From NCBI RefSeq assembly GCF_004762035.2, contig NZ_SIJK02000017.1, positions 50,159 through 111,874 of the forward strand: a stretch of DNA of 61,716 bases, read 5' to 3'. The stretch is from Candidatus Chloroploca mongolica. GTDB taxonomy: Bacteria; Chloroflexota; Chloroflexia; Chloroflexales; Chloroflexaceae. The notes beneath the pieces are model-generated. The model saw only the letters and a program-made list of their open reading frames with translations. It was not told where the DNA came from and ran no database searches. Positions 44,761 through 60,559 of this stretch are shown here, one piece after another; positions within the stretch are counted from its first letter, which is position 1; each line of letters begins with the position of its first letter. A program made the position numbers and the translations under genes.

Positions 44761-44815
44761 GAAAGTGCGGGAGAGTCACTTTTCGATTGACAAACACACC
44801 TAGCCTCCCTCTTAT

Positions 44816-45802: not shown

Positions 45803-45837
45803 GGGCGATGGATCCTTTGCTGCTGATGGGCTGGTTG

Positions 45838-45902
45838 GGCCGAAGCACCCGCCGCCGCGAGGTTCGCCGGGGGCGAACCTCGCGGCGGCGGGTGCTTCGG
45901 CC
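45838..45902. repeat. Perfect 31-bp inverted repeat with 3-nt loop
   Basis: Arms 45838-45868 and 45872-45902 are exact reverse complements, starting GGCCGAAGCACCCGCCGCCG, with a GGG loop. The stem is GC-rich and lies 35 bases before the replication-relaxation gene, in the 299-base gap after the ATPase. There is no T-run, so it is not a standard terminator; a replication, transfer or recombination site is possible. Confidence 0.92.
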
Positions 45903-46101
45903 TTACGTCGACGGCGTGCGCTGACTGCACGCTGGCGGGCCTGGCTCGGCTGACGATGTGACCGTCGCGTCGGCGGGTGCGCGAGACGAGTCGCGCTGCC
46001 TGCTTCTGCGATGCGGCTGCGCCAGGCTGAGCGCGGCGGCGAGGCGCGTCGCTCTGGGTGCCGGGCGGCGGGCGGGCCTGGGATGGCGGTGGTGAGCGCA
46101 T

Positions 46102-47160
46102 CTACGGGGGAGCCTGTCGTCTCGCCGGTGGGCCGGGCACGGCGGGCGGGGTGACCGCTGGCCCGGCGGGCGAGCGGGATGTCTCGCGCGGCCGCCGTCC
46201 GCGATCCGGCTGGGCCATGCTGCGTTCGTCGGTGGGGTAGCGGCGTACCAGCGCGGCGACGTAGCAGGCGTTGATCAGGGGGTGGACGCCGTAGCGCTGC
46301 TGGCTGAGTTGGGCGAGGTGTTGGTCGGCGGGGAGGGTGCGTGGGCACTGCGCCAGGTGCTCGGCGTCGTGTTGCGCGCGGCGAGTCGCGACGGCGCGCA
46401 GGCGTTCGATCAGGTGCTGGATCGCGGCCCAGGCCTGATCGCTCAACTCGCCCGTCCTCGTTCCGTGCCCCTCGGCGACCAGTGCGGCGCGGTGTTCCTG
46501 GTGGAGGGCGCTGAGCCATGCGTGGGCCACCGCGCGATAGACGGTCTCGGGCAGCAGGTCTGGGTGGGTCGCCAGGGCTTCGCGGACGCCCTGCTCCAGC
46601 GCTTCGAGGGTGGCTAGGTCGAGCGCTTCGGCGGGCGAGGCGGGCGTGAAGGGGGGGCGCGCGGTCGGGGGGTGCGCGGGGGCGGGCTGCTCGGGCGGGC
46701 GTTCGCGGGGGATGGCCGACATCAGGCCCATGTCGCGGCGTTCCACGGGGAAACGAATGAGCAGCTCTTCGCGGGGTTTGACGCCGGTGAAGTCTTCGGG
46801 TTGAAGCCCCTGGTTGGCGTAGGCATTGACCAGGTCGCGGGTGTCGTCGCGCACGCCGCTCGTCAGGCACATGCCGCCGATCACGTTCAGCACGATGCCG
46901 CCCAGCTTTTCGCCCAGTTGGTTCAAGCCCTGGTGCGCACCGATCAGGCCGACGCCCATCGAGCGGGTGCGCGTCCACATGCGCTCGGCGTCTTCGGCGC
47001 GCTCGGCCTTCACGAACATTTGCACCTCGTCGACAAAGAGCGGCCAGTCCCAGCGCTGCTCCGGGTCAGTTTCGTCCTGCTGGGCGAAGGTCGCGCTGAC
47101 GATGCTCTGGAAGAGTGCCGCCCCCACCCGGCTCGCGCACCCGGCCAGGCAGCGCAACAA
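46102..47160 (-). pseudogene. 5'-truncated conjugative-transfer ATPase (TraG/VirD4-type)
   Basis: The C-terminal ~350 residues are an element-transfer ATPase: WPLFVDEVQMFVKAERAEDAERMWTRTRSMGVGLIGAHQGLNQL contains Walker B and the sensor region, and LTSGVRDDTRDLVNAYANQGL follows. The Walker A half is absent. Homology begins near GCASRVGAALFQSIV (about 47155), and the upstream frame is unrelated AT/GC repeat sequence. It ends with a Pro/Arg-rich tail. It would have pumped DNA in conjugation; here it is dead. Confidence 0.78.
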
Positions 47161-47235
47161 CGGGTAAGATCTTTCGTGAGGCAACGAGCCCCGACAAAGT
47201 AAGATTCTCTCGTGAGGCAGAACGGGCGGCAAATC
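47161..47235. repeat. Imperfect direct repeat at the truncation point
   Basis: GTAAGATCTTTCGTGAGGCA (about 47163-47182) and GTAAGATTCTCTCGTGAGGCA-like sequence (about 47200-47219) are spaced 37 bases apart directly at the broken end of the conjugation ATPase. They could be transposon-end binding sites. Apart from these, 47161-47390 shows nothing. Confidence 0.5.
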
Positions 47236-47392
47236 TAGTTGACATTTAACACCGCCACACACGCCCGGAAGTCTGATTGCCCGCGCGGCCCGTGCCCTCC
47301 GCCCGGCCGCGCCACCCGAACCGCCGGGGTGGGTCAAAAGCAACCCGGCGATCTGGGTCAAAAATAAACCGGCCTTGACAGCGGGGCGCTTC

Positions 47393-47421
47393 TTGAGCGA
47401 TTGAAAGCATTTGGGTATAAT
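47393..47421 (+). promoter_or_regulatory. Sigma-70-type promoter for a candidate ncRNA
   Basis: TTGAGC (47393-47398), 17-base spacer, TATAAT (47416-47421, consensus). The expected start is at about 47428, exactly at the base of the terminal helix of the structured segment behind it. No ATG-started gene follows on the plus strand. Confidence 0.65.
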
Positions 47422-47426
47422 CAATA

Positions 47427-47556
47427 CCCTCGCCAAGATGGGCACCTCGTAAGACGGTAGTCAGCAAAGTGGGGAACAAGACCCACGGCCTCGGTCGCTT
47501 CTTTTCGCGTTTAGCGGGTAAAATGGAGCCGCTCGCGGTATGATTGTGGCGAGGGC
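47427..47556 (+). ncRNA. Candidate structured small RNA, about 130 nt
   Basis: A perfect 9-bp terminal helix (CCCTCGCCA 47427-47435 with TGGCGAGGG 47547-47555) closes a 111-base interior with hairpins GTGGG/CCCAC (47469-47486) and AGCGG/CCGCT (47513-47533). A consensus promoter places the transcript's first base at the helix. No T-run terminator follows; the flank is AT-rich. I do not recognise it as 6S, SRP, RNase P or tmRNA. It lies convergent to the injection system operon. Confidence 0.42.
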
Positions 47557-47568
47557 ATTATAACTCAA

Positions 47569-48093
47569 TTATTCGAATATTACTTTGTATGTAACATAGG
47601 CTGGTTTTTCAGATTGAATAATTTGTTCAATTAGAACACGGTAACGCTCACTCTGGTGCGGGGCGCGTATGTGCAGATGAAAGGGATGCAGGTGCTCGTC
47701 GACGGTGAAACCAGTCAGACCAGTCGCAATTTCGAGAAACTGGCACAGTCCGTATGCTGTCCCCCGCCAGCGTGACAGATGGGCGGCATTCGCAATCAAA
47801 TTGCGCAATCGAGCGATGCCGCTTGGAAAAGGCGGTGATACCGCTGATCCTGGTGAGCGTTCAGGATCAGGTATCGTTACCAACCATCCCAGATCAACCC
47901 AGTAAGCCAGAAAAGGGACAAAATAGTTGGGGGCACGGTAGGGATCAAAATAGGCATCCAGATTAGCCAGCACTGCTTCCGACGGTTCGTGCAAGGCTTC
48001 CATCGCAGCCAACACGCCAGCCAGCATGCTATCTGACCGCATGGTGCGCTGAAAGACACCCGGAAGAAGCTGGATAAGCTCATTCTGTTTCAT
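47569..48093 (-). CDS. Contractile injection system baseplate protein (phage tail protein I-like)
   Basis: A 174-residue protein of the P2 gpI/Pvc12-like group: ELIQLLPGVFQRT at the start and NLIANAAHLSRWRGTAYGLCQFLEIATGLTGFTV are typical of this baseplate wedge component. It is the last gene of the operon and overlaps the gpJ-like gene by 14 bases. Normally genes for tail fibre, tape measure and AAA+ ATPase would follow, but the operon ends here next to the ncRNA candidate and element debris. The sequence looks intact. Confidence 0.82.
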   Translation of the reverse strand: MKQNELIQLLPGVFQRTMRSDSMLAGVLAAMEALHEPSEAVLANLDAYFDPYRAPNYFVPFLAYWVDLGWLVTIPDPERSPGSAVSPPFPSGIARLRNLIANAAHLSRWRGTAYGLCQFLEIATGLTGFTVDEHLHPFHLHIRAPHQSERYRVLIEQIIQSEKPAYVTYKVIFE

Positions 48094-50641
48094 GTTCGCT
48101 CACCACGATAACTTCATGATTACCTGAGCAAAAAAGCCAGCTTTCTGGCAGAGCGACTTTTTCAGTAAATTCTGTATGTGATACACGGTTATATGTAACA
48201 CCTTTATCAGCACTTCCAAAGACGCCGTCACTCCCACTTGCAAGTACAAAATGGGCATCAGGTACAACAGCCACACTATCGATTGGCTGAAAGCGTGCTC
48301 GATCGCGCAAAGGCAAACCACAGCTAACATCAGGCGTTTCCCACTCTGGCATCTGCTTCGCCCGATCCAGACGTAGTACTCCGCTACGGTGTGAGCCAGC
48401 AAGTACGGTGGTACCGGCAAAAGCAAATGCACGACAACTTCCTCCCGACCAGCCACGCCCAAATGGTTGCCAGCCACCTGCACTATTCATATCCCACATA
48501 AAACAGCCTTTGCCAGGATCGTCCCCACCTGCCGACGCTGTGCCCGCCCACAAGTATGCGTTGGGGCCTTCAGATTGCACAGCCAGGGTGCGGATATCTT
48601 CACCCTCCAGTCCAATTGAGGCAAACGAGGCTGGCATCCCACCCTGGCGGGAAAGAAATACCCCGCTCTGACCCTGTGCTGCCACAGCCACACTGACCTC
48701 ACCACGCAGATTCTGCGCCGTAGCAAGCGCAAAAAAGCCCTGATGCTGCTTTGATGGATTGACGAGAATCTGGACGGGACTGGCATCCGGGTGCAATGTT
48801 TGTTCATACAGCCCACCATCAGTTGCCATCATGATCACAGGTATGCCCTCACGGGGAACCCAGACACAATCTTGCACATCAAAGGTTAGCATAAAACCGG
48901 ACTCCCACATTTCGCCGCAATCACGTGAGATATAGAGACGCGAACCGCTTTCATCTTCACGCTGCGTAATGACGGCGACCAGGCCAGCATGGGTAGGGTG
49001 GGTACGCACCAGCCTGACCTGTTCGTCAGAAAAATGTCTGACTGACTCCCAGCCGTTCCCATCATTCAGTGAACGGAACAGGCGTGAGCTGCTGCTCGCA
49101 TACCATGTGCGTGGTTGGAACACATCAGCAGCAAGCGAACGTACATGGGCATTGGGCACATCATCAACAATCAGTTTCACCTGATCGACCCACCGTACCC
49201 CCGGCTCGGCCAGGGCAATATCATAGATATGAGACGCACGCAACGCCTGGCCAAACGGCCACCCGGCTGGATTGATCTGCGTCGGGAGAGGATTGATCGT
49301 CTCGTAGAGGCGGTGAAGCACACGCTGCTGCACTGACGCTAGGTTTTCTTCGCGGCGCACAACAATGCGGAGACTGACACGCAAGCTTTTGTAATGGGCC
49401 CAGTTGACCAGGCACGTTGTGCCAAGCGGCCGACGCTGATCCAACTCCTTCTGGATCTGTTCACACGCTGCGGCTGTTTCATGGGCTTGCAGCGTAGCCA
49501 CATCAACCCGCTGCCCATCCTGTTGCGCAAGATATGGTACCAGCAGCACTTCTACAGTTCCGGGCGCTGCATGTGTCCAGAGGGAGGCGCGGGCAAAGGC
49601 TTTAGCACGCGCGAGTGTGCGTGAACTAGACAGGGCGAGCAGTTCAAAATCACGAGCCGTAACCGCGCGTTGCAGAGAATGCAACTCTTGTGGCCCACGA
49701 ATTAACGCATTCTCAAGGGTCTCTGCTGAGCGTCCACCAGTTGCGGCAGATGGATTGGTAACTTCTACTCCAGGTATGGCATCTTTCAACACCGTCAGCG
49801 TATTAGCAGGCACATTGCCTGCCAACCCACCACCGCGGCGATACCACAGGCGAACCTCGCGATTTGCTATGGGCAAGGCAGCCAGCATGCGCGGCTGGGC
49901 TTCGAGCAACCCTGCGTCCCAGCGCGTACGGCCTGCCGGGGCAAAAGTAATGCGACCCTGCAGCCGATCGGCTACATAGACAAATCCATCGGAACCTAGA
50001 TTCGCAAACGTCTGGACTTCGCGCCAGATCCGATATGTTTTTCCGTTGTACTGAAGTGCGGGAACGCGGTCACTCAGATCTTCCTGCGGCGTTTCTGTCC
50101 CCACAACAAGATCCAGATCATCACCCGTAGGGGCAATAATAGGCGGGTGCCTTGCAGACACCACAAACTGCGGCAAGCCTGTCCCCATCCCTGCCAATTC
50201 AGCTGCAACCAGATCACAGTGAAAGGCCAGCACACGCCCTTCGTGTTCGCCTACCTGAAGGGTGATCGTATGGACTGTAGAAAAGATTGGTGGCTCACTT
50301 CCGCCTGCCGTGCGGTTAAGGGTGACCCGTGTTCCACGGGGAATCTCAAGTGGCACATCAGTCTGGTTGCGCTTGAAGTGTAATTCAACCCGTGCGGCAG
50401 ATGGTGGCTGGAGGTGTACGCCCATCAAGCTCAGAAACTCAATATAGGCCTTGTTGGGCAAACGATTGAGTCGATAGATCATCGTTTCGGTCAAGTGCGC
50501 AAACAACTCCAGCAGCACAATACCCGGATCTCCCGGAGACAGATCTGTCCACTGGGGACATGTTTGCGCAATACGCTGTTTGGCTTGCTCAACCAGCGTA
50601 CGGAAATCACGATCATCCAGGTTAGGCGATGACAGGGACAT
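48080..50641 (-). CDS. Baseplate assembly protein J-like, fused to Asp-box beta-propeller
   Basis: An 853-residue protein. Residues 1-500 are a gp6/Pvc11-type baseplate J protein (DLSPGDPGIVLLELFAHLTE..., YRLNRLPNKAYIEFLSLMGV). From about 510 there is a BNR/Asp-box propeller with repeated S-x-D-x-G-x-x-W type motifs (SLNDGNGWE, SRDCGEMWE, SADKGVTYN). Asp-box propellers occur in sialidases and glycan-binding proteins, so the C-terminal half may be an exposed surface-binding part of the baseplate. The gene overlaps the gp25 gene (50641) and the tail-I gene. Confidence 0.85.
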   Translation of the reverse strand: MSLSSPNLDDRDFRTLVEQAKQRIAQTCPQWTDLSPGDPGIVLLELFAHLTETMIYRLNRLPNKAYIEFLSLMGVHLQPPSAARVELHFKRNQTDVPLEIPRGTRVTLNRTAGGSEPPIFSTVHTITLQVGEHEGRVLAFHCDLVAAELAGMGTGLPQFVVSARHPPIIAPTGDDLDLVVGTETPQEDLSDRVPALQYNGKTYRIWREVQTFANLGSDGFVYVADRLQGRITFAPAGRTRWDAGLLEAQPRMLAALPIANREVRLWYRRGGGLAGNVPANTLTVLKDAIPGVEVTNPSAATGGRSAETLENALIRGPQELHSLQRAVTARDFELLALSSSRTLARAKAFARASLWTHAAPGTVEVLLVPYLAQQDGQRVDVATLQAHETAAACEQIQKELDQRRPLGTTCLVNWAHYKSLRVSLRIVVRREENLASVQQRVLHRLYETINPLPTQINPAGWPFGQALRASHIYDIALAEPGVRWVDQVKLIVDDVPNAHVRSLAADVFQPRTWYASSSSRLFRSLNDGNGWESVRHFSDEQVRLVRTHPTHAGLVAVITQREDESGSRLYISRDCGEMWESGFMLTFDVQDCVWVPREGIPVIMMATDGGLYEQTLHPDASPVQILVNPSKQHQGFFALATAQNLRGEVSVAVAAQGQSGVFLSRQGGMPASFASIGLEGEDIRTLAVQSEGPNAYLWAGTASAGGDDPGKGCFMWDMNSAGGWQPFGRGWSGGSCRAFAFAGTTVLAGSHRSGVLRLDRAKQMPEWETPDVSCGLPLRDRARFQPIDSVAVVPDAHFVLASGSDGVFGSADKGVTYNRVSHTEFTEKVALPESWLFCSGNHEVIVVSEHETE

Positions 50642-51075
50642 TAGAAATCCTCTCCTGCCAGATGTATCGAAACGACCAGATGCTCAATCTGTCGGGTCGC
50701 CCGGACACGGTAATCCAGGATTATCAAGAGCCGATCAGGTTCCAGATGATGGCGTTGCGCATCAATATGCACAATCTCGATACGCGGTTCCCAGCGTTCC
50801 AGAGCACTCCGCACATAATAGATAGCCAGGCCAGCCGCAGTTTCATCATTAGGGGAAAAGACAAGGCGGTGCAATAAACAGCCATAATCTGGTCGCATTA
50901 CCCGCTCACCAGGGATCGTCGAGAGGAGCAGCAAGATAGCCTGGCGTACGCTCGCATCACCTGAGACCATCGCCACACCACCCTGATCGTTGACTTGCAA
51001 CCCGGCGGATGGATCCATTACATCCATACCAGGAACGACAAAGCGCCAGGCCTGGTAGCGTGAACCAGCTGTCAT
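50641..51075 (-). CDS. Baseplate wedge protein gp25-like
   Basis: A 144-residue GPW/gp25 family protein with the conserved VRQAILLLLSTIPGERVMRPDYGC block. gp25 nucleates sheath assembly on the baseplate in phage T4 and its relatives (Pvc9-like). It follows the PAAR-like gene without gap and overlaps the gpJ-like gene by one base. Confidence 0.88.
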   Translation of the reverse strand: MTAGSRYQAWRFVVPGMDVMDPSAGLQVNDQGGVAMVSGDASVRQAILLLLSTIPGERVMRPDYGCLLHRLVFSPNDETAAGLAIYYVRSALERWEPRIEIVHIDAQRHHLEPDRLLIILDYRVRATRQIEHLVVSIHLAGEDF

Positions 51076-51417
51076 CTATGTTCCCTCCCTGACCAGATCC
51101 TGACCAGCGCGTCGTACGTGATACTCTACAATGCCTGGTGGAGTACCATCAGTCAAACCAATGACCGTATCCAAACAGACCTGTTTCCCCTGGATGCGCA
51201 CCAGGTCAGAATAGCCCTGTTTCACGGCCAGAGTGGTTGTACACGGCTTGATCGTCGGCCCGATATTTGGGCATCCGACAATTGTCTGGCTTTCAGGATT
51301 AGTTGCGACCAGTACGCGGCGATGGGCAATAGTGACCAGATCCTGGGTTGGCTTATGGTTCACTATACCCAATTCATGCGCACATACCAGCACACCATCC
51401 TCACTCAAGAAATACAT
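51076..51417 (-). CDS. Spike-tip protein (PAAR-like)
   Basis: A 113-residue protein with HELGIVNHKPTQDLVTIAHRRVLVATNPE, CPNIGPTIKPCTTTL and a C-terminal TPPGIVEYHVRRAGQ, matching the PAAR-like tip family that caps the spike in environmental contractile systems. ATG 51417 is set by GAGG seven bases upstream; a TTG at 51459 is less likely. It lies between the VgrG-like spike and gp25, as in known loci. Confidence 0.82.
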   Translation of the reverse strand: MYFLSEDGVLVCAHELGIVNHKPTQDLVTIAHRRVLVATNPESQTIVGCPNIGPTIKPCTTTLAVKQGYSDLVRIQGKQVCLDTVIGLTDGTPPGIVEYHVRRAGQDLVREGT

Positions 51418-51445
51418 GTATATGCCTCTTTGCTCATCAGGCAAC

Positions 51446-52966
51446 TCACCCTCGTTCAAAGTTAATAAACTGCCCTCGAATTGTCACTAATCGACCTGGT
51501 GCTTCCAGGTCAAGGTCAGTTGCAGCATGCAGCAGCAATTTTTCTGGCGACAGCTCCAGATAGCTGCCGTCACTATTTTCGAGGCGGATCAAGTTGCCGA
51601 CATCGTCAAGCCTGATGCGCTGACCGCCACGAGTCAGCAGCGTATACTGTCGAACACTACGCTCATTAATCCCACTATCAGGTACGCCGCCCATGCCATA
51701 CAACCCACCCAGCACAATGCCCTGCGCTGGATCTTCATGGGGCAACAGGACAAGCACATGATCGCCCACATCCGGAAGGGCCATCAAGCCTTTGTTTTGA
51801 CCAGCGGCAATCGCCAGAACACCCAGCCATTCGCTCTCAACATCATTGTAGGTAGGGAAAACGATACGCACACGCCCCAGATGATCGGGATCATCAACTC
51901 GACTTACAATGCCAATTGTCGTCACTGTGCTATGCGGGCGTGGAGCGGGCATAGGAGGCATTGTTGACAATTCAGACACAAAGCCCATCTGATGATCAAT
52001 GGTATGCTTGACCGCAGTCAATACGTATGTCCCGGCAAGATGATCATCGACACCACGCACCTCAACTGGGGTACCTGGCTGCAAGCGGGTATCGCCATCC
52101 GCTATGCCCCAGAACGTCACTTCACGTGCAGTTTGCCGATCCAGTTCAGCGCATGCCATTGCTTCAGTATGGCTGTTGTCTTGCGTTACCTCATCTACCA
52201 TCGTGCGAATACCATTGCCACCAACCTGATCAGGGAGCACCTCAGCCCTGACTGATCTTCTGCTCCGCGGCGTAGTCGCACTCGCCGTAAACTGTTCAAT
52301 GCGCAAGGGATTCCAGCCTAGCGTCTCAACCACACGGCAGGCTGGATCTCCATTCAATTCAATGCGAGCCTCAAACAGGGTCTCACGCAAGATAAGGGGC
52401 ACAGCTTCGCCGATACCTGCCAGCGTCAACAAATGCAGCACATGCTCACGCACCACCACATAGAGACCACAGGCGTCGGCAATTGTGGTCAATAATTCTA
52501 AATCAGATTGGCGAGCCTGGATCCGTTGTTGCCAGAGTGGGCCATGTTCAGTGGCATCTACTGTTAATCCTATGTCAGCGACCAACTCTTGAGCTAGATC
52601 GTACAGGCTTACCTGCACATGACTGCGCACAGACTGGCGCTTGCGTAGGCGATGCAACAAATCGTACCCACGCACACGTAGTTCACGCCCACCCGCTGGA
52701 TCATAGGTATATTCGAGCGCCGTGATCTCGCCCACGAATAGAGGATCACGCTGATCAGGCACACGGATGCGCAGCGAGGTACCGGGGGCAAGGCGGTGTG
52801 CGGCACTCAGATGCTGGGGAGGGTCAACAAATACCAGTTCACATTGGCACGGCAAGGACAGTTGCTGCTGTACCATGATGGCCTGCAATGTGTGTGTATC
52901 TTGAGACGGCATTTCAATGCCGTTTAATTCTATTTTTACATGTGGTCTATAGATACGTTTTTGCAT
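51446..52966 (-). CDS. VgrG/gp27-gp5-like spike (Pvc8 family)
   Basis: A 506-residue hub-spike protein. The N-terminal ~340 residues resemble gp27/baseplate hub (VELNGIE..., FVGEITALEYTYD). A phage_base_V OB domain sits at about 355-460 (VSRVDDPDHLGRVRIVFPTYNDVESEWL...LPDVGDHVLVLL). It forms the needle tip base carrying PAAR. No good ribosome site precedes ATG 52966; the upstream gap is very AT-rich with a 23-bp hairpin, and an internal promoter or RNA signal there is possible. Confidence 0.88.
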   Translation of the reverse strand: MQKRIYRPHVKIELNGIEMPSQDTHTLQAIMVQQQLSLPCQCELVFVDPPQHLSAAHRLAPGTSLRIRVPDQRDPLFVGEITALEYTYDPAGGRELRVRGYDLLHRLRKRQSVRSHVQVSLYDLAQELVADIGLTVDATEHGPLWQQRIQARQSDLELLTTIADACGLYVVVREHVLHLLTLAGIGEAVPLILRETLFEARIELNGDPACRVVETLGWNPLRIEQFTASATTPRSRRSVRAEVLPDQVGGNGIRTMVDEVTQDNSHTEAMACAELDRQTAREVTFWGIADGDTRLQPGTPVEVRGVDDHLAGTYVLTAVKHTIDHQMGFVSELSTMPPMPAPRPHSTVTTIGIVSRVDDPDHLGRVRIVFPTYNDVESEWLGVLAIAAGQNKGLMALPDVGDHVLVLLPHEDPAQGIVLGGLYGMGGVPDSGINERSVRQYTLLTRGGQRIRLDDVGNLIRLENSDGSYLELSPEKLLLHAATDLDLEAPGRLVTIRGQFINFERG

Positions 52967-53062
52967 ATTTTATTTGTCACTTATTAGTTATAATATTCCA
53001 TATGGGTTTATTTATGTAGAGGGAGTTGCGCCCGGGGCTGATGAGTTTTAAGAATTAAATTC

Positions 53063-53116
53063 GGTAGTGCCGACTTCAGTCGGCTGAGCTAGAAGCCGAC
53101 TGAAGTCGGCACTACC
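53063..53116. repeat. Perfect 23-bp inverted repeat inside the injection operon
   Basis: Arms 53063-53085 and 53094-53116 are exact complements (GGTAGTGCCGACTTCAGTCG and its complement) with an 8-base loop. It is in the 202-base gap between spike and Pvc7-like genes, itself AT-rich. It could be a mobile palindrome or a processing site balancing expression. Confidence 0.85.
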
Positions 53117-53168
53117 ATATACCCAATTTAATATTGAATATTCATTAGCCCCGGAATTCCACCACGGG

Positions 53169-53975
53169 TCATTGTTGCTGACGTAAGGCAGCAAGGAGTG
53201 CAGACAGTGGTGGAAGACGCAGTATGCTGCCTGCAGTGATCCGCAATGGGTCTGCAATATCGTTAAAACAAGCAATCAGGCGCCACAGCGCGGCAGTTTG
53301 CATGTCCTGGTCAGCATATGATAGTGGTGCCTCCCCATAAAATCGCGATGCTACGACATATAATCGTTCACCGAGTTCTGGTTGATCGTCTGTACTGCCA
53401 GCTGTAGTTTCATACGAAGTTACATGCTCTACTAAGGCGTCAGGTCCAAGCATGGCCAATTCTTCTGGCGTTAAGGTGGCCTGAGAGGTGGACTGGCTGC
53501 CAGTCGGGCGCATAATGGGCTCACTGACCCGCACGAAGCGCATACGCAACCAGGAACGACCCGGTGCCCCTACCATCGTAAATTGCTCCAAACGCTCAGT
53601 CACGGCAGTGATGATGCCAGGGATGTTCCAGGCTTTGCCCCAGACAAACCGCACCTGTCGGAGTTGAGTGGTGCCATCTGCTGACAGCGTATTTTCGGTA
53701 AGGTTCCATAGAGGGCGAGTCAGGTCACGTACGTCATCAGTCTGAATTGAAGAGCCAGTCAGACTGACATCAAAGAGCAATGACAGTTCAAGCTCTGTGT
53801 GCCCACCACCCGTATAGATGAGCGGGTCGTCGGTCAGACCTGCACCAGTCAGTTGCCCACCTACCGACTGGCGTGTGCGGATGCCTGCCACACGTCGCAT
53901 CAATAACGTGTTGGGATTCAACAGACAACTGATCTGTTCACCAGTACTTTCGAGCAAAAAAACGACACGCTCCAT
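53169..53975 (-). CDS. Pvc7-like tube/LysM assembly protein
   Basis: A 268-residue protein. Its N-terminal half matches the contractile injection tube-like domain (ELELSLLFDVSLTGSSIQTDDVRDLTRPLWNL), and the C-terminus has a LysM-like segment (LYVVASRFYGEAPLSYADQDMQTAALWRLIACFNDIADPLRI). It is the counterpart of Afp7/Pvc7, placed as usual between tube and spike. Start ATG 53975 lies three bases after the previous stop. Confidence 0.8.
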   Translation of the reverse strand: MERVVFLLESTGEQISCLLNPNTLLMRRVAGIRTRQSVGGQLTGAGLTDDPLIYTGGGHTELELSLLFDVSLTGSSIQTDDVRDLTRPLWNLTENTLSADGTTQLRQVRFVWGKAWNIPGIITAVTERLEQFTMVGAPGRSWLRMRFVRVSEPIMRPTGSQSTSQATLTPEELAMLGPDALVEHVTSYETTAGSTDDQPELGERLYVVASRFYGEAPLSYADQDMQTAALWRLIACFNDIADPLRITAGSILRLPPLSALLAALRQQQ

Positions 53976-53978
53976 GCT

Positions 53979-55433
53979 TCACCACCTGTGCCAGCCACGA
54001 CGCTCCTGCTCCAGACGCTGATACCGTTCCCATTGACGTAACTGCTGCTGCATCTCGCCTCCTGGTTCGGTTGCTATATCTGGTAGAGCAATCCAACGTT
54101 CATCTAATGATGGAGGCAACAACTGCACTTCGGCGTGAGGGTCAGGGAACAATCTGGGCCAGGGATCTTCATAGGGAGCCTGTTGTTGGAAAGCAGGGTT
54201 CAGACGTGCCGTTCGATCGCCCTCTTCTGAAGGACGTGAGTGCCTTTGTGACATGCGTTCGTCAGTGAAGGATATGGGGCTGGCATGTTCTTCTACCGCC
54301 TTTTTCATCGCTGCATGCCGAGCGGAAGGTGACGTGCGAACATCAGTGAAGGATATGGTGCTGGCATGTTCTTCTACCGCCTTTTCCATCGCTGCATGCC
54401 GAGCGGAAGGTGAAGTGCCAACATCAGTGAAGGATATGGGGCTGGCATGTTCTTCTACCGCCTTTTTCATCGCTGCATGCCGAGCGGAAAGTGAAGTGCC
54501 AACATCGCTATGCGACAAAGCGTCTGTAAGGCGTCCCTCCTGTTCATCTGCGAACTCTGGGGCGAGGGGGGTAGCGTTGGGGCCGGATGCTAGTCTTGCT
54601 TGCTCGCCAGCGGCATATGCTGTCTGTGCCTGAACTTCATGAGCAAGCAGAGATGCGGCGAGCGTTTGGTCGGAGGGCGCGTTTTCTTCCGCATCTTCCC
54701 TGAGCGAGGGAGCGACAGAATGAACGACCTCTGGAAATATCTGGCGACGCATAGCCATGCCCTGCACCTCACGCTGATCATCGCGTTCGTGCAGAGGGGC
54801 ATGAAGCTGCTGGCTAGCTAAGGAAGCACCATGCTCTTCGGATGTATCTGCAGTCTGCCCCTGGCGTTCATTGGGCACTGCAATTGATTGATCAGGGCGA
54901 ATATGAGCAACTGACTGGGTGCGACGTGGCAACGGCACATGGTAGATAGGCCCATGATCAAGCCCACGCGGTTCAGCATCACGCTGCTGAGGCAGATCAC
55001 GTTCAGCGTCAACCTCTTGCGCGGGCGGGAAGGGCGCATCGTATGGGGAAGACTCAGGCTGCATGGCTGGTGAGGGCTGGTGCGGTGCTCGGTATTCTGA
55101 TGCAGTCGAGGGCGGAGCAATCTGCCATGTGCTTGAACGATCGACAGGATCGAGCAACTGAGGCGCATGCTGACGAACCACAGCCAGCCAATGGGCAGGT
55201 GGGCCACTGCTGCGCACATGATGCCGCCAATGCTCTGGCGGCTCAGGGCGCTGGTCTAGCGGATTTGTTGCAGCAGGCGCAGCATCCGTCTGTGGAGGTG
55301 CAGGGGGTGTCGGGATATGCTGCTCAGTTGTAACTGAAGCAACTCCGGCACGGCGCAGCAAGACATCACCCCAATGCTCCATCTGCCGACCGACTGCATA
55401 CAAAAGCCAGCGACGCATAGCGGCATACCTCAC
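53979..55433 (-). CDS. Repeat-rich protein of unknown function in the injection operon
   Basis: A 484-residue, highly polar Gln/His/Glu-rich protein without homology I recognise. The N-terminus (MRRWLLYAVGRQMEHWGDVLLRRAG) and C-terminus (LRQWERYQRLEQERRGW) look like conserved amphipathic anchors; the middle is disordered-looking. Between residues ~310 and ~400 there are three full copies and one partial copy of a 27-residue repeat (SFTDVGTSPSARHAAMEKAV then EEHASTI), seen in DNA as 81-base units at 54263, 54344 and 54425. It occupies the place of the small Pvc6-type gene. GTG 55433 overlaps the tube stop (GTGA); ATG 55418 is possible. Confidence 0.65.
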   Translation of the reverse strand: MRYAAMRRWLLYAVGRQMEHWGDVLLRRAGVASVTTEQHIPTPPAPPQTDAAPAATNPLDQRPEPPEHWRHHVRSSGPPAHWLAVVRQHAPQLLDPVDRSSTWQIAPPSTASEYRAPHQPSPAMQPESSPYDAPFPPAQEVDAERDLPQQRDAEPRGLDHGPIYHVPLPRRTQSVAHIRPDQSIAVPNERQGQTADTSEEHGASLASQQLHAPLHERDDQREVQGMAMRRQIFPEVVHSVAPSLREDAEENAPSDQTLAASLLAHEVQAQTAYAAGEQARLASGPNATPLAPEFADEQEGRLTDALSHSDVGTSLSARHAAMKKAVEEHASPISFTDVGTSPSARHAAMEKAVEEHASTISFTDVRTSPSARHAAMKKAVEEHASPISFTDERMSQRHSRPSEEGDRTARLNPAFQQQAPYEDPWPRLFPDPHAEVQLLPPSLDERWIALPDIATEPGGEMQQQLRQWERYQRLEQERRGWHRW

Positions 55434-55891
55434 GCTCGATCAAGGGTTTCAAAGACAATCGTCAAGGTCTCAATCGCCAACGCATGATCCAGCGCATTCA
55501 GCGGTGCACCGCGCCAACGTGCAGGCCAGGCATTAATGCAATCCCAACGCATCACCTCTGCCACACCGCGACTGTCAAGCATCAAAATCGAAATATTCTT
55601 CCGCTGAACCCGCCCCTCCACTGCAGTCATAAACCAATCCCAGAGTTCACGCGAATCAGTCAACCCATAGCGCAGTTCAATATCACCATACGTGACCGGC
55701 CCGGGAACACGATGCACCACTTCATTCACCCCACCCTGGCGATATCTGATTGCATGCACTTGAATATCAAAGCCACTGCATTCAGTAAAATGACCTGCGG
55801 TAATACCCTGAATTTCAAGCTTGAAATTATATACACGATACGGATCGGCAAAGACGCCGGCTTGCCCTCCAGAGGCACCTGGATCTGACAT
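55430..55891 (-). CDS. Contractile injection system inner-tube protein
   Basis: A 153-residue gp19/Pvc1-5-type tube protein: DPYRVYNFKLEIQGITAGHFTECSGFDIQVHAIRYRQGG is the standard N-terminal half. Hexamers stack to form the tube that is driven through the target membrane. GGAGG six bases before the ATG. Only one tube gene is visible, whereas many systems carry two. Confidence 0.9.
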   Translation of the reverse strand: MSDPGASGGQAGVFADPYRVYNFKLEIQGITAGHFTECSGFDIQVHAIRYRQGGVNEVVHRVPGPVTYGDIELRYGLTDSRELWDWFMTAVEGRVQRKNISILMLDSRGVAEVMRWDCINAWPARWRGAPLNALDHALAIETLTIVFETLDRA

Positions 55892-55902
55892 ACGTGACCT
55901 CC

Positions 55903-57126
55903 TTACTCAATCTCGACGCTTCCTTCAGACTGGCTAATGCGGAAGATAATAAACTCAGCTGGCTTCACCGGTGCAACACCAATCAGGGTGACAACCATCC
56001 CCGCATTGATCACGTCGGGGGGATTAGTCTCCGCATCACATTTGACAAAAAACGCCTCTTCGGGCGTATTCCCCATCAAGGCGCCATCGCGCCACAGACG
56101 CGTAAGGAACGCACGAATATCGCGTCGAATCGACTTCCAGAGCGACTGATCATTAGGCTCAAAGACGATCCAGCGCGTACTTTGCGCAATTGACTCTTCA
56201 ATCATCGTGAACAGACGGCGCACATTGAGATACCGCCATTCACTGCTGCCATCAGCGACCGTACGAGCGCCCCAGATGCGAATACCCTCGCGGAGGAAAA
56301 AGCGAATACAATTCACTCCATTTTGGTTCAACTCGCCCTGTTCATCAGGTGTAAGCCGGTAGGTCAAATTGAGTGCCCCACGGAGCGCTTCATTGGCCGG
56401 CGCCTTATGCACACCGCGCTGAGCATCGCTGCGTGCCCACACCCCGGCAACATGACCTGAAGGCGGCACAGCCATCTGCTGCCCAGAAAGCGGATCGCGC
56501 ACAATAATGTAGGGAAAATAGAAGGCACCATATCCCCGATCAGACTGACGTGGGCGTAAACCCTGGGGCTTCGGTGGCTGACGTGGAGGGCTACCACTAG
56601 CGTCCTCGCCACTTGCGGCCGCGGGTGGCGCCGCAACCTGAACGGTAGCAACTCGCGTAAGCAGATCAATGTTGTCAACGCGAGCAGGGGCATCAAGGAT
56701 CGCAACGCGATCCTTGAGTTTCTCACAATGGGTCAGCAAGGCATCATACGATGCAACATCGCTAAACCCCGGAGCCGCCACAATGGCCACCTCATCGATC
56801 TCCTCCAATACCTCTACACCTGAACGCTCGCTCCCACCTCCAGCGATTGACTGCCCTGACCCGATATTGACAACATAGCAACGTCGCCCGCCATTCAGAA
56901 AGAAGCCATAGACAGCATGAGACAGATGCGTACTTGCAGCATTGTCAGGAACATACTCGCGAACAAACTGCTGCCAATTATTCAGCGCAACAGCTTCATT
57001 GACATGGGCGTTGGCATTGGGAGCACGCCCGACAAAAGCGGCTGTACTGGTACCAACAGCCTGGATTGGCCTTGGACCACGTTCGATCTCCTCAACGTAC
57101 ACGCCTGGGGTCATATAGTTTGGCAT
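55903..57126 (-). CDS. Contractile sheath protein
   Basis: A 407-residue sheath protein. Marks: TPGVYVEEIERGPRPIQAVGTSTAAFVGRAP at the start, GIRIWGARTVADGSSEWRYLNVRRLFTMIEESIAQSTRW in the C-terminal half, and PAEFIIFRISQSEGS at the end, the tube-contacting arm. The sheath surrounds the tube and contracts. GAGGGG lies just before ATG 57126. It is the second gene of the operon, after the cap gene. Confidence 0.93.
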   Translation of the reverse strand: MPNYMTPGVYVEEIERGPRPIQAVGTSTAAFVGRAPNANAHVNEAVALNNWQQFVREYVPDNAASTHLSHAVYGFFLNGGRRCYVVNIGSGQSIAGGGSERSGVEVLEEIDEVAIVAAPGFSDVASYDALLTHCEKLKDRVAILDAPARVDNIDLLTRVATVQVAAPPAAASGEDASGSPPRQPPKPQGLRPRQSDRGYGAFYFPYIIVRDPLSGQQMAVPPSGHVAGVWARSDAQRGVHKAPANEALRGALNLTYRLTPDEQGELNQNGVNCIRFFLREGIRIWGARTVADGSSEWRYLNVRRLFTMIEESIAQSTRWIVFEPNDQSLWKSIRRDIRAFLTRLWRDGALMGNTPEEAFFVKCDAETNPPDVINAGMVVTLIGVAPVKPAEFIIFRISQSEGSVEIE

Positions 57127-57140
57127 AGCACCCCTCTACC

Positions 57141-57833
57141 TTATTGATCCAACAAATCAACATGGATCAGCAGCGGCTCATCAAGCGACGACGGACCAGG
57201 CTTGACTTTCACCTCAAACTCGCGTCCTCTCGTCTTCACCGACAACAGCGTAGCGGTGGGCATATCAGGCACGCTAGCAAAGTGAAAACAGCCCTGGGTA
57301 TCGGTATAATGTCCCATCTGGAGTGCAGGTAGTTCGATGCGTGCCCCCTTAATGGGCTTATCACCTGGACCAACCAACTTGCCATAGAGCGACACCATTA
57401 ATCCGGAATGTATAACCAGTGGTTGGGCAACCATCGGCACATCCGGTTCAGAACGGGGAAAGCGGGCGGGCACGAGGAGGAGGAAGGCTGGCTGTGGAGG
57501 GACACCAAATGAAGACCAGACTGCCGCCGTCTGGGGTACCAGTTCAACGGTGTACTCTGCTTTATCCAGGGCCGCAAACACGAGAACACCCAGCAGGCGA
57601 TGCGCCTCCTGAATATCTTCGGCCCAGGTGGTAACGACATAGCGCAACAAGACCTGAAGCGGTGCGCGTTTTGTGGTACGAGCAGGAGGGTCAGGCAAGA
57701 TATCTTGCAAGTACAAACTCACTCCACAACCGTCTGTTGCGGTCCCTGGAGGTTGGAGCGAAATAGTGAGCGAGGGCAAGTCGAGGATGCTGGATACCCA
57801 CCTGGACAACTGATGATCGATCTGGTCAAACAT
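57141..57833 (-). CDS. Sheath terminator/cap protein (DUF4255, Pvc16-like) with carboxypeptidase-regulatory-like tail
   Basis: A 230-residue protein: residues ~1-145 are DUF4255 (LDLPSLTISLQPPG...LLRYVVTTWAEDIQEAHRLLGVLVFAAL), the cap that closes the distal tube end. A C-terminal ~80-residue beta-sandwich of the carboxypeptidase-regulatory type follows (KLVGPGDKPIKGARIELP...YTDTQGCFHF), an addition not present in most Pvc16 proteins. ATG 57833 fits the promoter's expected start near 57881; an upstream ATG at 57887 would precede the transcript. It is the first gene of the operon. Confidence 0.85.
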   Translation of the reverse strand: MFDQIDHQLSRWVSSILDLPSLTISLQPPGTATDGCGVSLYLQDILPDPPARTTKRAPLQVLLRYVVTTWAEDIQEAHRLLGVLVFAALDKAEYTVELVPQTAAVWSSFGVPPQPAFLLLVPARFPRSEPDVPMVAQPLVIHSGLMVSLYGKLVGPGDKPIKGARIELPALQMGHYTDTQGCFHFASVPDMPTATLLSVKTRGREFEVKVKPGPSSLDEPLLIHVDLLDQ

Positions 57834-57887
57834 ACAGATCACCGTGAATAAAGCAGCCGTTTGGGTATGTTGATATACTCTAAGCAT

Positions 57888-57916
57888 ACAATATCAAGGA
57901 AATACCCCATTGTCAA
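57888..57916 (-). promoter_or_regulatory. Promoter of the contractile injection operon
   Basis: Minus-strand TTGACA (57911-57916, consensus) and TATTGT (57888-57893) with a 17-base spacer. Expected start near 57881, giving a ~48-base leader to ATG 57833. It overlaps back-to-back with the plus-strand promoter of the 57998 gene. Confidence 0.82.
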
Positions 57917-57925
57917 CGTTTATGT

Positions 57926-57955
57926 TTGACTTGGCACCGACGCATCTGCTATAGT
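57926..57955 (+). promoter_or_regulatory. Divergent promoter of the Ig-like membrane gene
   Basis: TTGACT (57926-57931) and TATAGT (57950-57955), 18-base spacer, then a leader with GAGGAG (57985-57990) seven bases before ATG 57998. The nine-base gap to the opposite -35 makes shared or mutually exclusive regulation likely. Confidence 0.8.
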
Positions 57956-57997
57956 ATATGCAATTTCATTCATTGCTGACATATGAGGAGACGCTCT

Positions 57998-59080
57998 ATG
58001 TCCAGCCCGTTCGCGATTACTACGGTCAGTACCACGCTTCAGCTATCTACCACACGACAGGGCGAATCAGTCTTTACCGTTTCTAACACCTCAGGGCGCC
58101 AACTTACCGGCCGTGCTCGGGTAACGCCGACCGACCCCGCGACGGCTGGCTGGTTTACCCTGAGTGGGGAAAGCGAGCGTGACTTCAGACTGAACGAGAC
58201 CCATCAATACAATGTTCGTGTGGCGATACCCTCGCACGTACAACCGGGCAACTACACGTTTCATCTCGATATGGTCGGGGTGGAAAATCCAGATGAGCAG
58301 TATACCCGAGGGCCAACCGTACAGGTGGAGGTGCCTGCTAACCCTTTGCCACCAGGCACGCCCTTTCCCTGGTGGATCGTTGCCGTAATCGTCGGCGTAC
58401 TCCTGCTCGGCGGAGGGTTGGCAGCGTATCTTATCTGGGGGCGCGATGGAGACAATGGGGCGATTACTAACACACCGACCCCAACACTAGAGCCAAGCGT
58501 AACACCAACACTAGAGCCAAGCGTAACACCAACACTAGAGCCAAGCGTAACCCCGACGCCCTTTGCCCTCGCTGATCCTGTGCTTCTCTCTTTTGATGAA
58601 GCCCTGGGGGTTCTTTCCGAAGATTTTTACGCCAGCCTTGGCGTCAGTCTCACCACGCCAGCATCAAACTTTGGTGACGAAGTCATAGGCATTGTAGCCA
58701 ACGGCAATACATCGGCATGCGTTGAGTCAAAAAGCCCCGAGGATCGGGTTCTTGCAACCGGGCGCGGTTCAAGCGTTGGTGTTTCGGCATTTCCCATTCG
58801 CGCCACGTTTGACCCACCTGTCGTAGCGGTGAGTGTCGAGTTTCAAGGCCCCGCCAATTTTCGCATGCGCCTGTTTTCAGGCACCGAGGAGTTAGAGACC
58901 GTTAGTGCGGTTGGCAGTGCCGCTGGAACCTGTGGCTTCCCTGGTTCACCGCGCAGCAACGGAACGATTGAGGCTACTGCTTCGCCTAATAAACCGATTA
59001 CGGCTGTAATTTTTGATGAGCCTTCTGGGGGCAGGGTCTTTGCCATTGATAACCTCATGTTTACCCCCCTGAACCCTTGA
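57998..59080 (+). CDS. Membrane-anchored Ig-like protein with TPTLEPSV repeats
   Basis: A 360-residue protein. Residues ~1-115 form an Ig-like beta sandwich without signal peptide (probably cytoplasmic), followed by one membrane helix (~125-147, WWIVAVIVGVLLLGGGLAAYLIW). Three TPTLEPSV repeats form an extracellular stalk, and a ~160-residue beta-rich outer domain has two Cys that could pair. GAGGAG fixes ATG 57998. It is divergently controlled with the injection operon; anchoring or docking the apparatus to the membrane is an attractive inference, not shown. Confidence 0.7.
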   Translation: MSSPFAITTVSTTLQLSTTRQGESVFTVSNTSGRQLTGRARVTPTDPATAGWFTLSGESERDFRLNETHQYNVRVAIPSHVQPGNYTFHLDMVGVENPDEQYTRGPTVQVEVPANPLPPGTPFPWWIVAVIVGVLLLGGGLAAYLIWGRDGDNGAITNTPTPTLEPSVTPTLEPSVTPTLEPSVTPTPFALADPVLLSFDEALGVLSEDFYASLGVSLTTPASNFGDEVIGIVANGNTSACVESKSPEDRVLATGRGSSVGVSAFPIRATFDPPVVAVSVEFQGPANFRMRLFSGTEELETVSAVGSAAGTCGFPGSPRSNGTIEATASPNKPITAVIFDEPSGGRVFAIDNLMFTPLNP

Positions 59081-59098
59081 TTGATCTGCAAAACAAGG

Positions 59099-59617
59099 AT
59101 GAGTATTAAACTGTTTACGGCGGTACTCGTACTTCTGATCCTGTTCTTTATCCTTGGGGTCGGCCTGGGTGCTGGCAATAGCAATAGCCAGGTTCCCAAC
59201 ATCGACGTGGGGTGGATTCAGGGGATCGGGCGGCTCGTGCCTGCGCCAGCACTGACCTTTGATGATATGCAGCCTCTGTCACCACCGGGGCTATGCCCAC
59301 CTCCCCAGAATAATCAATTGATAGTTGGCCTTGGCCAGACCTGTGAATTTCGCATGGCGACAACCAGTACCCCCGTGCGCAGACTACCCCTGCGGGTAGT
59401 TCAGGGTGCCACTATGCGATTTGAAATGACACAACCAGGCGTAGCGGGAGGAACACAGCGTCGAAGTTGCAACCAGACGATCAACGTTGATGTCTACGAA
59501 GGAGGCGAAGATGAATTTGCACTTCTACGGATCACCTGTCTGTTAACAACTGATAGCTCTTGCCCTGGCGAACCATCATTAAGTAATAGTATATGTGTTC
59601 TTGAAAAAGATAATTGA
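59099..59617 (+). CDS. Small secreted or membrane-tethered protein, unknown
   Basis: A 172-residue protein with an N-terminal membrane helix (LFTAVLVLLILFFILGVGLGAG) and an outer domain with several Cys (CPPPQ, CEFRM, CNQTI, CLLTT, SSCPG, SICVL), possibly disulfide-bonded. It follows the Ig-like gene by 18 bases and is probably co-transcribed. ATG 59099 is assumed; its ribosome site is poor and a TTG at 59081 is possible. No family recognised. Confidence 0.6.
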   Translation: MSIKLFTAVLVLLILFFILGVGLGAGNSNSQVPNIDVGWIQGIGRLVPAPALTFDDMQPLSPPGLCPPPQNNQLIVGLGQTCEFRMATTSTPVRRLPLRVVQGATMRFEMTQPGVAGGTQRRSCNQTINVDVYEGGEDEFALLRITCLLTTDSSCPGEPSLSNSICVLEKDN

Positions 59618-59652: not shown

Positions 59653-60417
59653 TTAAGTCAACGAGCGATCAACGCGCACGGCCTTCAAGATGGCAATCAG
59701 CGATCCGATTAGCAACACAACAGACCAGATTGCAGCAAACACCGCACCAAGCATAGCGGCAATGCCATCAGTAATGCTGACCAGTACAAGCGGAACCAGA
59801 CCATGCAGCAAACTCACAAGCACATGAGCCAGGAATGATGTCAGCACAAGCAACATCAAGCCAGAATTTTGAAGAAAGCGTTGATGAGCCACTACCAGGC
59901 AGACGGCAAACCCAAGCTTAAGCATCAGCAGGAATGACAAAACAATGCCTGCTCCACCCCGATCAAAAAAGCCATACTTTACCAGGTAGGTTATGGTTCC
60001 AAATGGCACAGCCAGGAAGAGCGAGACCATGAAGAGAACCATCCCGAGCGCCGCAAAGAGCAGTGTTATGCTCAACAGCAACAACAGCAATGCGAAAATG
60101 AGCGTTGCAATACCTTGAATGCGCCCGTGAACTCGTTCAGGAACGACCAAACTTATGCCCATCAAGCCGACTGTAAACAACACAATGCTATCAATCAACG
60201 CAAGATACTGGATCGCCATCCCTGGTCGAGTGCTTTGTTCAATCTGACTCTGGTCAACCTCACCAACATCAAGGCTATCATCGACACGACTGATATCTGC
60301 GGGCGAGATCTGCCCACTCGGACTCTGCAAGACCAGAGTCGAGCCAAGCTCAATCAGCACGACTAGGGCAATGAGCACCAGTGCCAGTGCAAACACTGGC
60401 GTGCGCAAACGATCCAT
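59653..60417 (-). CDS. Multi-pass membrane protein of unknown function
   Basis: About 254 residues with six to seven hydrophobic segments (VFALALVLIALVVLIEL, IATLIFALLLLLLSITLLFAALGMVLFMVSLFLAV, MLLVLTSFLAHVLVSLL and others). MDRLRTP at 60417 is a plausible positive-inside start; the frame is open to 60669, but that part overlaps a decayed plus-strand gene and is unlikely to be translated. An ATG at 60471 is also possible. Convergent with the secreted gene, 35 bases apart. No family recognised. Confidence 0.6.
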   Translation of the reverse strand: MDRLRTPVFALALVLIALVVLIELGSTLVLQSPSGQISPADISRVDDSLDVGEVDQSQIEQSTRPGMAIQYLALIDSIVLFTVGLMGISLVVPERVHGRIQGIATLIFALLLLLLSITLLFAALGMVLFMVSLFLAVPFGTITYLVKYGFFDRGGAGIVLSFLLMLKLGFAVCLVVAHQRFLQNSGLMLLVLTSFLAHVLVSLLHGLVPLVLVSITDGIAAMLGAVFAAIWSVVLLIGSLIAILKAVRVDRSLT

Positions 60418-60559
60418 ATACCACCATCCCAACACTCCAACGCCCCAACGTGCTAACGTCAACGACAGCATTAAAATTAGGTCATAGACCTGAGGGGAAA
60501 ACTTATCAGCCTCGGCATGCTCATAGGGCAACTCAGCCTGCAGGCAGTCGATATCTACG

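What the first reader, a model, noticed from the sequence alone, without database searches (positions are those of the whole stretch)
47569..57833. Compact contractile injection system without visible ATPase, tape measure or fibre
Cap, sheath, tube, unknown, Pvc7, spike, PAAR, gp25, J and tail-I genes form a ten-gene operon. AAA+ ATPase, tape-measure and fibre genes normally end such loci but are absent here, and debris follows directly. Either the locus was truncated, or the system is simplified and the repeat-rich 484-residue protein takes the length-ruler role.
Basis: partly seen in the sequence, partly recalled or inferred. Interest (0 to 1): 0.6.

Follow-up and report, generated by a model that had tools for sequence, protein, structure and literature searches.

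The report
ATPase-free, fibre-free compact contractile injector
This is a complete, compact spear-gun-like injection machine, found in several bacterial phyla, that lacks the loading motor and tail fibres usual in such systems and is nearly always accompanied by its own set of membrane proteins, which suggests it fires from inside the cell at the membrane.

Summary
The ten-gene contractile injection operon is real, intact and not truncated. The same gene order recurs in 80 loci (eight phyla by record title) and on two plasmids, none with a CIS-type AAA+ ATPase in the DNA held (0 of 80; its one hit is FtsH). The three other CIS loci of the same genome each have an AAA match on their contig. Of 29 host genomes examined, 12 have a single sheath match and none of these has the ATPase, so supply in trans is unlikely. 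Y has a PapD/Ig-like domain, one membrane helix and a variable outer domain (PASTA in 22 of 47); R has six predicted membrane helices. In 400 genomes of the phylum R occurs in 7 and the compact sheath in 6, all among those 7. J carries a C-terminal beta-propeller. Best reading: a self-contained CIS docked at the inner face of the membrane, a variant related to type IId cytoplasmic CIS. The 484-residue protein is proline-rich and probably disordered; similar proteins lie in longer-sheath systems, at least two with an ATPase, so a ruler role is possible but unproven.

The parts
57141..57833 (-). cap / tail terminator (Pvc16_N-like, with carboxypeptidase-regulatory-like C-terminal domain)
   Evidence: Pfam PF14065 26.5 bits, just below cut-off 27; precedes the sheath in relatives
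55903..57126 (-). single short sheath, 407 aa
   Evidence: PF04984 and PF17482 over cut-off; 29 compact sheaths are one side of a branch, support 100/99
55430..55891 (-). inner tube (gp19-like)
   Evidence: PF06841, TIGR02241
53979..55433 (-). X: 484 aa, proline-rich, probably disordered, conserved C-terminal WP.LP...RRL..EQ.G motif; possible ruler or scaffold
   Evidence: composition and motif
54262..54506 (-). three 81-base tandem repeats inside X
53169..53975 (-). Pvc7-like hub/tube initiator
   Evidence: PF19266 over cut-off
51446..52966 (-). VgrG-like spike
   Evidence: PF04717, PF05954
51076..51459 (-). tip protein at the PAAR position; invariant Cys/His; PAAR identity not supported by the libraries searched
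50641..51075 (-). gp25-like baseplate protein
   Evidence: PF04965
48080..50641 (-). baseplate J with C-terminal beta-propeller (about residues 500-850)
   Evidence: TIGR02243, PF04865; AlphaFold mean pLDDT 88.4; Foldseek; profile hits to BNR/GH74 proteins
47569..48093 (-). tail-I / TIGR02242 baseplate protein
57983..59080 (+). Y: bitopic membrane protein, N-terminal PapD/Ig-like domain, TM helix, variable outer domain
   Evidence: profile search, AlphaFold residues 11-120 pLDDT 96-98 by block and helix 130-152, topology
59081..59617 (+). Z: small protein with one N-terminal TM helix
   Evidence: profile search, hydropathy
59653..60417 (-). R: six predicted TM helices, found almost only with the compact sheath
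57888..57955 (.). divergent sigma-70-like promoter matches between cap and Y
   Evidence: 3 matches in 57700-58200 against 0.5 expected; consensus matches only

Best explanation
It is a complete, compact contractile injection system of 13 genes (ten structural, plus Y, Z and R), a member of a widespread lineage that has no CIS-type AAA+ ATPase in its loci and no recognisable tail fibre or classical tape measure. SHOWN by sequence: gene set, conservation, absence of the ATPase from the loci, predicted membrane helices, the J propeller (model). INFERRED: particles assemble in the cytoplasm (assembly needs no ATPase, as in the S. coelicolor and Photorhabdus ATPase deletions); the baseplate (J propeller and/or tail-I) then docks on the cytosolic PapD/Ig-like domain of Y; the outer domain of Y (PASTA and others) holds or senses the cell wall; R and Z form the membrane platform; contraction drives the spike through the cell's own envelope. 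This is analogous to CisA-dependent firing of the Streptomyces cytoplasmic CIS. With no loader and no separate conserved effector gene found, the payload is the spike/tip itself, or Y.
For: Conserved order in 80 loci where contigs allow. CIS ATPase in 0 of 80 compact loci: one hit, L111, is FtsH by NCBIfam (669.9 bits, cut-off 600). The same search hit 10 of 26 stretches of longer-sheath loci (own genome 2 of 6, query included; family 8 of 20). In the own genome the three other sheath loci each have an AAA match on their contig within about 27 kb, the compact one none. In 29 host genomes 22 ATPase matches at E up to 1e-40: 17 share a contig with another, non-compact-locus sheath within about 24 kb, 5 are on contigs without a sheath match, none is within 40 kb of the compact sheath. 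Genomes with one sheath match: ATPase in 0 of 12; with more: 14 of 17. Y directly after tail-I in 55 of 57 loci with at least 1.3 kb held beyond it. R and compact sheath coincide: 2 of 158 in the class; all 6 sheath genomes among 7 R genomes of 400 in the phylum. Y topology: TM in 47 of 47, more K/R before than after it in 38, equal 5, fewer 4; PASTA in 22 of 47.
Against: No interaction, localisation or particle has been shown. Y has the architecture published for Sco4256, which was called a putative toxin, so Y may be cargo and not an anchor. In L103 no Y was found after tail-I. R was found full-length in 26 of 29 genomes (in G172 about 23 kb from the sheath), as a 54-aa fragment in one and not in two with short contigs. 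One genome (G504) has R without a compact sheath at the cut-off used. 12 of 20 longer-sheath family stretches also gave no ATPase hit in the held DNA; most are cut by contig ends and I did not fetch more. An unrelated ATPase elsewhere in the genome could still serve.
Confidence: 0.58

Rival explanations
1. Y is a Sco4256-type membrane effector carried by the particle, not an anchor; the system is a cytoplasmic or released injector whose conserved cargo is Y.
For: Published Sco4256 has a first domain like pilus-assembly chaperones, then a TM segment, then in about a third of homologues a lectin/toxin-like domain, and was found in purified particles; Y's N-terminal domain also matches PapD-type chaperones by fold. 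[quoted passage not shown]
Against: Y sits at the fibre/CisA position after tail-I; PASTA is a wall-binding rather than toxin domain (function recalled); it travels with R, a polytopic protein unlikely to be cargo of a tube (inference). Homology of Y and Sco4256 was not tested; a Streptomyces clavuligerus plasmid locus gave no Y match.
Confidence: 0.27
2. A truncated or decaying canonical eCIS that lost ATPase, tape measure and fibre by the rearrangement at 47.2 kb.
For: The tail-I side borders ORF debris without Pfam match and, further on, an ORF with a transposase domain; in nearly all relatives judged Y follows tail-I, here it lies on the other side.
Against: All ORFs open; same gene order without ATPase in 80 loci of several phyla and in stretches of two complete plasmids; Y, Z, R present in the window.
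Confidence: 0.03
3. The compact system borrows the ATPase of the other three CIS of the same cell.
For: In this genome AAA proteins lie by the three other CIS loci; 14 of 29 host genomes have a CIS ATPase.
Against: 12 of 29 host genomes have a single sheath match and no CIS ATPase at E up to 1e-40; some are drafts.
Confidence: 0.07
4. The 484-residue protein X is the length ruler (tape measure) in this and related CIS.
For: It lies between tube and hub, where phage tape measures lie (recalled); its length varies (234-597 aa in the 59 collected by motif); proline-rich counterparts of 617-792 aa in four longer-sheath family systems and 1381 aa in S. clavuligerus.
Against: 11% proline, 21% ILVFWYM, no hydrophobic helix, unlike helical phage tape measures (recalled); no particle lengths available.
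Confidence: 0.3

Closest known systems
Type IId cytoplasmic CIS of Streptomyces (CISSc; SCO4242-4260)
   Same: Nearest solved sheath (8bky, same sequence as in 9gtp) and J (9gtp, S. coelicolor) by sequence and fold; no conventional fibre or Afp14-like tape measure in S. coelicolor and S. venezuelae (PMC10066040 passage); membrane protein in the fibre position (CisA, PMC12237407).
   Different: S. coelicolor has a AAA+ ATPase needed for function (PMC10020575 passages), as has the S. clavuligerus plasmid locus; that locus also has a longer sheath, a J of 648 aa, a second tube, and no Y, Z or R match.
CisA (SCO4242)
   Same: Bitopic, N-in/C-out, encoded just after the baseplate genes, required for firing (passages; discussion).
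   Different: CisA's cytosolic part is largely unstructured and its C-terminal domain conserved; Y has a folded N-terminal domain and a variable C-terminal one.
Sco4256-4258 family
   Same: Chaperone-like first domain, TM, third domain in part of the homologues (section read).
   Different: Published as putative toxin/effectors; a link to R/Z-type membrane proteins is not mentioned in the section I read; homology not tested.
Roseiflexus/Chloroflexota CIS (PMC12998442)
   Same: Same phylum, intracellular, IId lineage (abstract and passages).
   Different: A figure legend lists an ATPase gene in its cluster; no close cisA homologue (passages).
AFP / PVC eCIS
   Same: Shared core of cap, sheath, tube, spike, gp25, J.
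   Different: No recognisable Afp13 fibre, Afp14 tape measure or Afp15 ATPase; one sheath and one tube gene.

Membership tests
Contractile injection systems (broad) | sheath, tube, spike, gp25, J, cap in one locus | tested here: met
eCIS as described in PMC10020575 | locus invariably encodes an AAA+ ATPase | tested here: not met
   0 of 80 compact loci (the L111 hit is FtsH); no PF00004 match on contig C69
eCIS as described in PMC10020575 | Pvc16_N tail terminator | tested here: inconclusive
   26.5 bits against cut-off 27, E 6e-6
AFP/PVC-type eCIS | Afp13 fibre and Afp14 tape measure | tested here: inconclusive
   no such family match among the ten proteins in Pfam and NCBIfam, none for Y, Z, R in Pfam or Y in NCBIfam (window member); fast-evolving fibres or rulers (X included) could escape
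Type IId CIS | clade membership on sheath/J tree with Streptomyces | tested here: inconclusive
   nearest solved relative is S. coelicolor, but the tree held no Streptomyces rows
Type IId CIS | AAA+ ATPase in the locus | tested here: not met
   contrast S. clavuligerus
T6SS (i-iii) | trans-envelope complex TssJLM and ClpV | tested here: inconclusive
   Y, Z, R give no such Pfam match, no PF00004 match on the contig; TssJLM not searched genome-wide
CisA family | unstructured N-terminus, conserved solute-binding-like C-terminal domain | tested here: not met
   Y model: folded N-terminal domain, variable C-terminal domains
Sco4256 family | sequence homology to Sco4256 | not tested
   sequence not fetched; only the published description compared
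PAAR tip proteins | PAAR profile match | tested here: not met

The most novel reading that the evidence does not exclude
A distinct class of contractile injection system, spread through at least nine phyla (by record title), that dispenses with the cargo-loading ATPase and fibres and instead is triggered at the inner face of the cytoplasmic membrane by a dedicated Y-Z-R platform contacting a beta-propeller on the baseplate J protein, with the disordered protein X setting tail length in the manner of the type III rulers FliK/YscP (recalled analogy).
Probability: 0.2. Interest if true: 0.8.

Novelty: new variant of a known kind. Interest (0 to 1): 0.6.

Why it matters
The AAA+ ATPase is printed as an invariable mark of eCIS loci, and its loss makes S. 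coelicolor particles non-functional though normal in appearance (PMC10020575 passages); in PVC it associates effectors with the particle (PMC11495950, seen as a search listing). A natural lineage without it makes the question 'what is the ATPase for?' directly testable. Surveys that ask for ten core genes (PMC8213781), for several tube and initiator genes (PMC12210884) or for a fibre (PMC12923769) would tend to drop it (inference; their tables were not seen). Y-Z-R gives concrete genes to delete.

Tried and rejected
Truncation, and ATPase supply in trans, were tested and are disfavoured. L111, the only CIS-ATPase hit in 80 compact loci, was set aside after NCBIfam named it FtsH. The match list was cut, so PF00004 distances were not taken from it. 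A clustering of remaining ORFs first returned antisense shadows of sheath and J and was repeated without ORFs overlapping named genes: then no other gene matched more than 3 of the other 28 loci compared; X itself matched only 2 there, so fast-evolving genes escape this test. X homologues were collected with a motif pattern written after seeing examples (58 of 79 loci; 59 with the window), so its counts describe rather than test. Z is weak as a family (47 of 80 loci by profile after three rounds). 12 of 20 longer-sheath family stretches gave no ATPase hit; most are cut by contig ends, and this was not followed up. PHROGs, and Pfam for Y, Z, R, gave nothing useful. The PAAR label was tested and not supported. 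Pfam gave no match for the debris ORFs 44816-46978 and 46102-47445. Papers: PMC12210884, PMC10066040, PMC12998442 and PMC10598620 were seen as passages (PMC12998442 also abstract); PMC8213781, PMC10020575, PMC12237407 and PMC12923769 as passages and one section each; PMC13277306 as abstract; PMC11495950 only in search listings; the 2019 dbeCIS paper is not held. Searches aimed at an ATPase-less, PASTA-linked, propeller-bearing or Micromonospora CIS in print showed none in the rows listed (searches listed 10 of 32, 12 of 34 and 10 of 11 papers); subscription papers and supplements were not seen.
Full report
WHAT IS THERE. On the minus strand, 57887 (probably 57833) to 47569, ten open reading frames follow each other almost without gaps. 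Families: cap (Pvc16_N, borderline), sheath, gp19-like tube, Pvc7-like CIS_tube protein, VgrG-like spike, gp25, baseplate J (TIGR02243), tail-I (TIGR02242). The 484-residue protein and the 'PAAR' protein match nothing convincing; the latter has invariant Cys and His residues in 22 sequences but no library searched calls it PAAR.

OTHER CIS IN THE SAME GENOME. A sheath profile finds four loci: the window (contig C69) and C86, C111, C122. The AAA profile PF00004 matches on C86, C111 and C122 within about 27, 5 and 5 kb of their sheath genes, and nowhere on the 111,874-base C69. The window ends at the end of C69, so what lies beyond is unknown.

RELATIVES. A scan of genome contigs kept the best 80 of 308 confirmed places; all 80 have a full-length or near full-length match to the short sheath, and the record titles name Chloroflexota, Actinomycetota, Acidobacteriota, Gemmatimonadota, Planctomycetota, Verrucomicrobiota, Desulfobacter-type and alphaproteobacterial hosts, many of them metagenome bins. 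Over 30 are Micromonospora or near kin and L096/L097 are near-copies in one genome, so the counts are not independent. The gene order is the same where the contig allows; genes found by similarity to the window's: sheath 80, tube 79, cap 78, Pvc7 68, spike 65, gp25 65, tip 64, J 63, tail-I 60 of 80. Stretches of two complete circular plasmids show it too: Deinococcus sp. AJ005 p96k and Paracoccus sp. MC1862 unnamed2, with Y and R in both and Z clear in the first, weak in the second. On a tree of 51 sheaths, 29 compact rows (window included) are one side of a branch (100/99) against 21 longer ones; one further short sheath (L052) falls outside; the root is not known, and no Streptomyces row was included.

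NO ATPASE. The CIS ATPase of C111 was used as query. In 80 compact loci (1.39 Mb) and 32 further, partly overlapping stretches around 29 of them (0.53 Mb) there was one hit, L111, which NCBIfam names FtsH; so 0 of 80. The same search hit 10 of 26 stretches of longer-sheath loci: 2 of 6 of the own genome (the query's own included) and 8 of 20 of the family; 12 of the 20 gave none, most of them cut by contig ends. In 29 genomes carrying the compact locus (chosen from the 80 loci) it matched 22 places in 14 genomes at E up to 1e-40; set against the sheath places, 17 of 22 share a contig with another sheath within about 24 kb, 5 lie on contigs without a sheath match, and none is within 40 kb of the compact sheath (nearest 49 kb, G164). 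Genomes with exactly one sheath match had the ATPase in 0 of 12, the others in 14 of 17 (Fisher p 1e-5, ignoring relatedness). Some are drafts. In a named control, the S. clavuligerus plasmid, the ATPase follows the cap; the two AAA proteins near the Deinococcus locus are of other families (a helicase-like one and a ParA-like one).

THREE MISSED GENES. Downstream of tail-I relatives carry Y, often Z and R. In the window these are 57983-59080 (+), 59081-59617 (+) and 59653-60669 (-; start probably 60417), beside the cap. By profile Y was found in 60, Z in 47 and R in 40 of the 80 loci as held, many of which end near tail-I. Of 57 compact loci with at least 1.3 kb held past tail-I, Y follows directly in 55 (37 as called, 18 with an over-long start), lies upstream in one (L127) and was not found in one (L103). 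R was found full-length in 26 of the 29 genomes (in G172 about 23 kb away), as a 54-aa piece in one, not in two with short contigs. None of 26 longer-sheath stretches matched Y, Z or R. R occurs in 2 of 158 genomes of the class, the two whose sheath matched over its whole length in one piece, and in 7 of 400 of the phylum; the six genomes with a compact sheath at E up to 1e-100 are all among the seven, the seventh is G504. The cap-Y gap holds divergent promoter-like sites.

ANATOMY OF Y, Z, R AND J. Y: AlphaFold gives a beta sandwich at residues 10-117 (block pLDDT 96-98), a helix 130-152, a disordered linker and a less certain outer beta domain; Foldseek relatives of the first domain include PapD-type chaperones, MSP and other Ig-like folds, best TMt 0.71 among the 50 rows shown. 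All 47 members have the TM; positive residues favour the N side in 38, equal in 5, the other side in 4; outer domains include PASTA (22 of 47), kelch, DUF11, PKD. Z has one N-terminal TM, R six by simple hydropathy. J: mean pLDDT 88.4; residues up to about 490 match the S. coelicolor baseplate protein 9gtp, and GH74 and other propeller structures are also matched. In 61 of 64 compact J matches the alignment reaches past residue 800 (two of the others are cut by the contig, one is a short separate ORF), whereas 5 of 6 longer-system J proteins stop by about 490 (one of them, L051, cut by the contig); the sixth (L043) has a match reaching 847.

THE 484-RESIDUE PROTEIN. X has 11% proline, 21% ILVFWYM and no hydrophobic helix. 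Relatives share an N-terminal basic helix-like stretch, often a PP-HWL motif (44 of 59), and a C-terminal WP-LP ... RRL--EQ-G motif, by which they were collected. Proline-rich proteins of 617-792 aa occupy the same place in four longer-sheath family systems (L042, L043, L049, L053; only L053 shows an ATPase in the held stretch), and one of 1381 aa lies between the two tube genes of the ATPase-bearing S. clavuligerus locus. So X looks like a general component and not a substitute made for a missing tape measure; it may be the ruler in all of them or something else. The 81-base repeat (three copies) offers a natural test.

HOW IT PROBABLY WORKS. Published deletions show that particles form without the ATPase (PMC10020575 passage), so assembly needs none. 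A paper states that all previously studied CIS must bind a membrane before firing (PMC12237407 discussion). Here no fibre is recognisable; Y-Z-R is the usual companion. I therefore infer docking at the inner face of the cytoplasmic membrane through Y, as with CisA, and firing through the cell's own envelope. The main doubt is Y, whose plan resembles that of Sco4256, described as a putative toxin.

VERDICT. It is a new variant of a known kind, best placed near type IId but failing the ATPase criterion.

Noticed in passing
G000 contigs C86, C111, C122 (L006-L011): Three further CIS loci with longer sheaths and an AAA match on each contig in the same genome.
   Followed up: partly
L082:20037-21023 and L197:22593-23510: A multi-TM protein between tail-I and Y; its letters (seen for L163:1-435, the continuation, and L197) hold HENTHVWQ and HEFVHVLQ, reminiscent of the DUF4157 motif (recalled); possible payload.
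   Followed up: no
window 58481-58551: Three perfect 24-base repeats in the linker of Y.
   Followed up: no
L052 (G001:C540:1-10449): Another short-sheath (390 aa) CIS with cap, on a long branch outside the compact clade; contig ends soon after the tube.
   Followed up: no
window 43461-47445: ORF with a DUF772 transposase domain and overlapping ORF debris next to tail-I; one stretch reads like a conjugation coupling ATPase (recalled, no Pfam match).
   Followed up: partly
window 61147-61716: DUF5131 protein cut by the contig end.
   Followed up: no
L126:7414-8253 and similar places in Micromonospora loci: A lipoprotein-like protein with C-terminal TM upstream of the cap gives weak Y-profile matches.
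   Followed up: partly
G504:C8:330844-331635: R gene in a genome without a compact sheath at E up to 1e-100.
   Followed up: no
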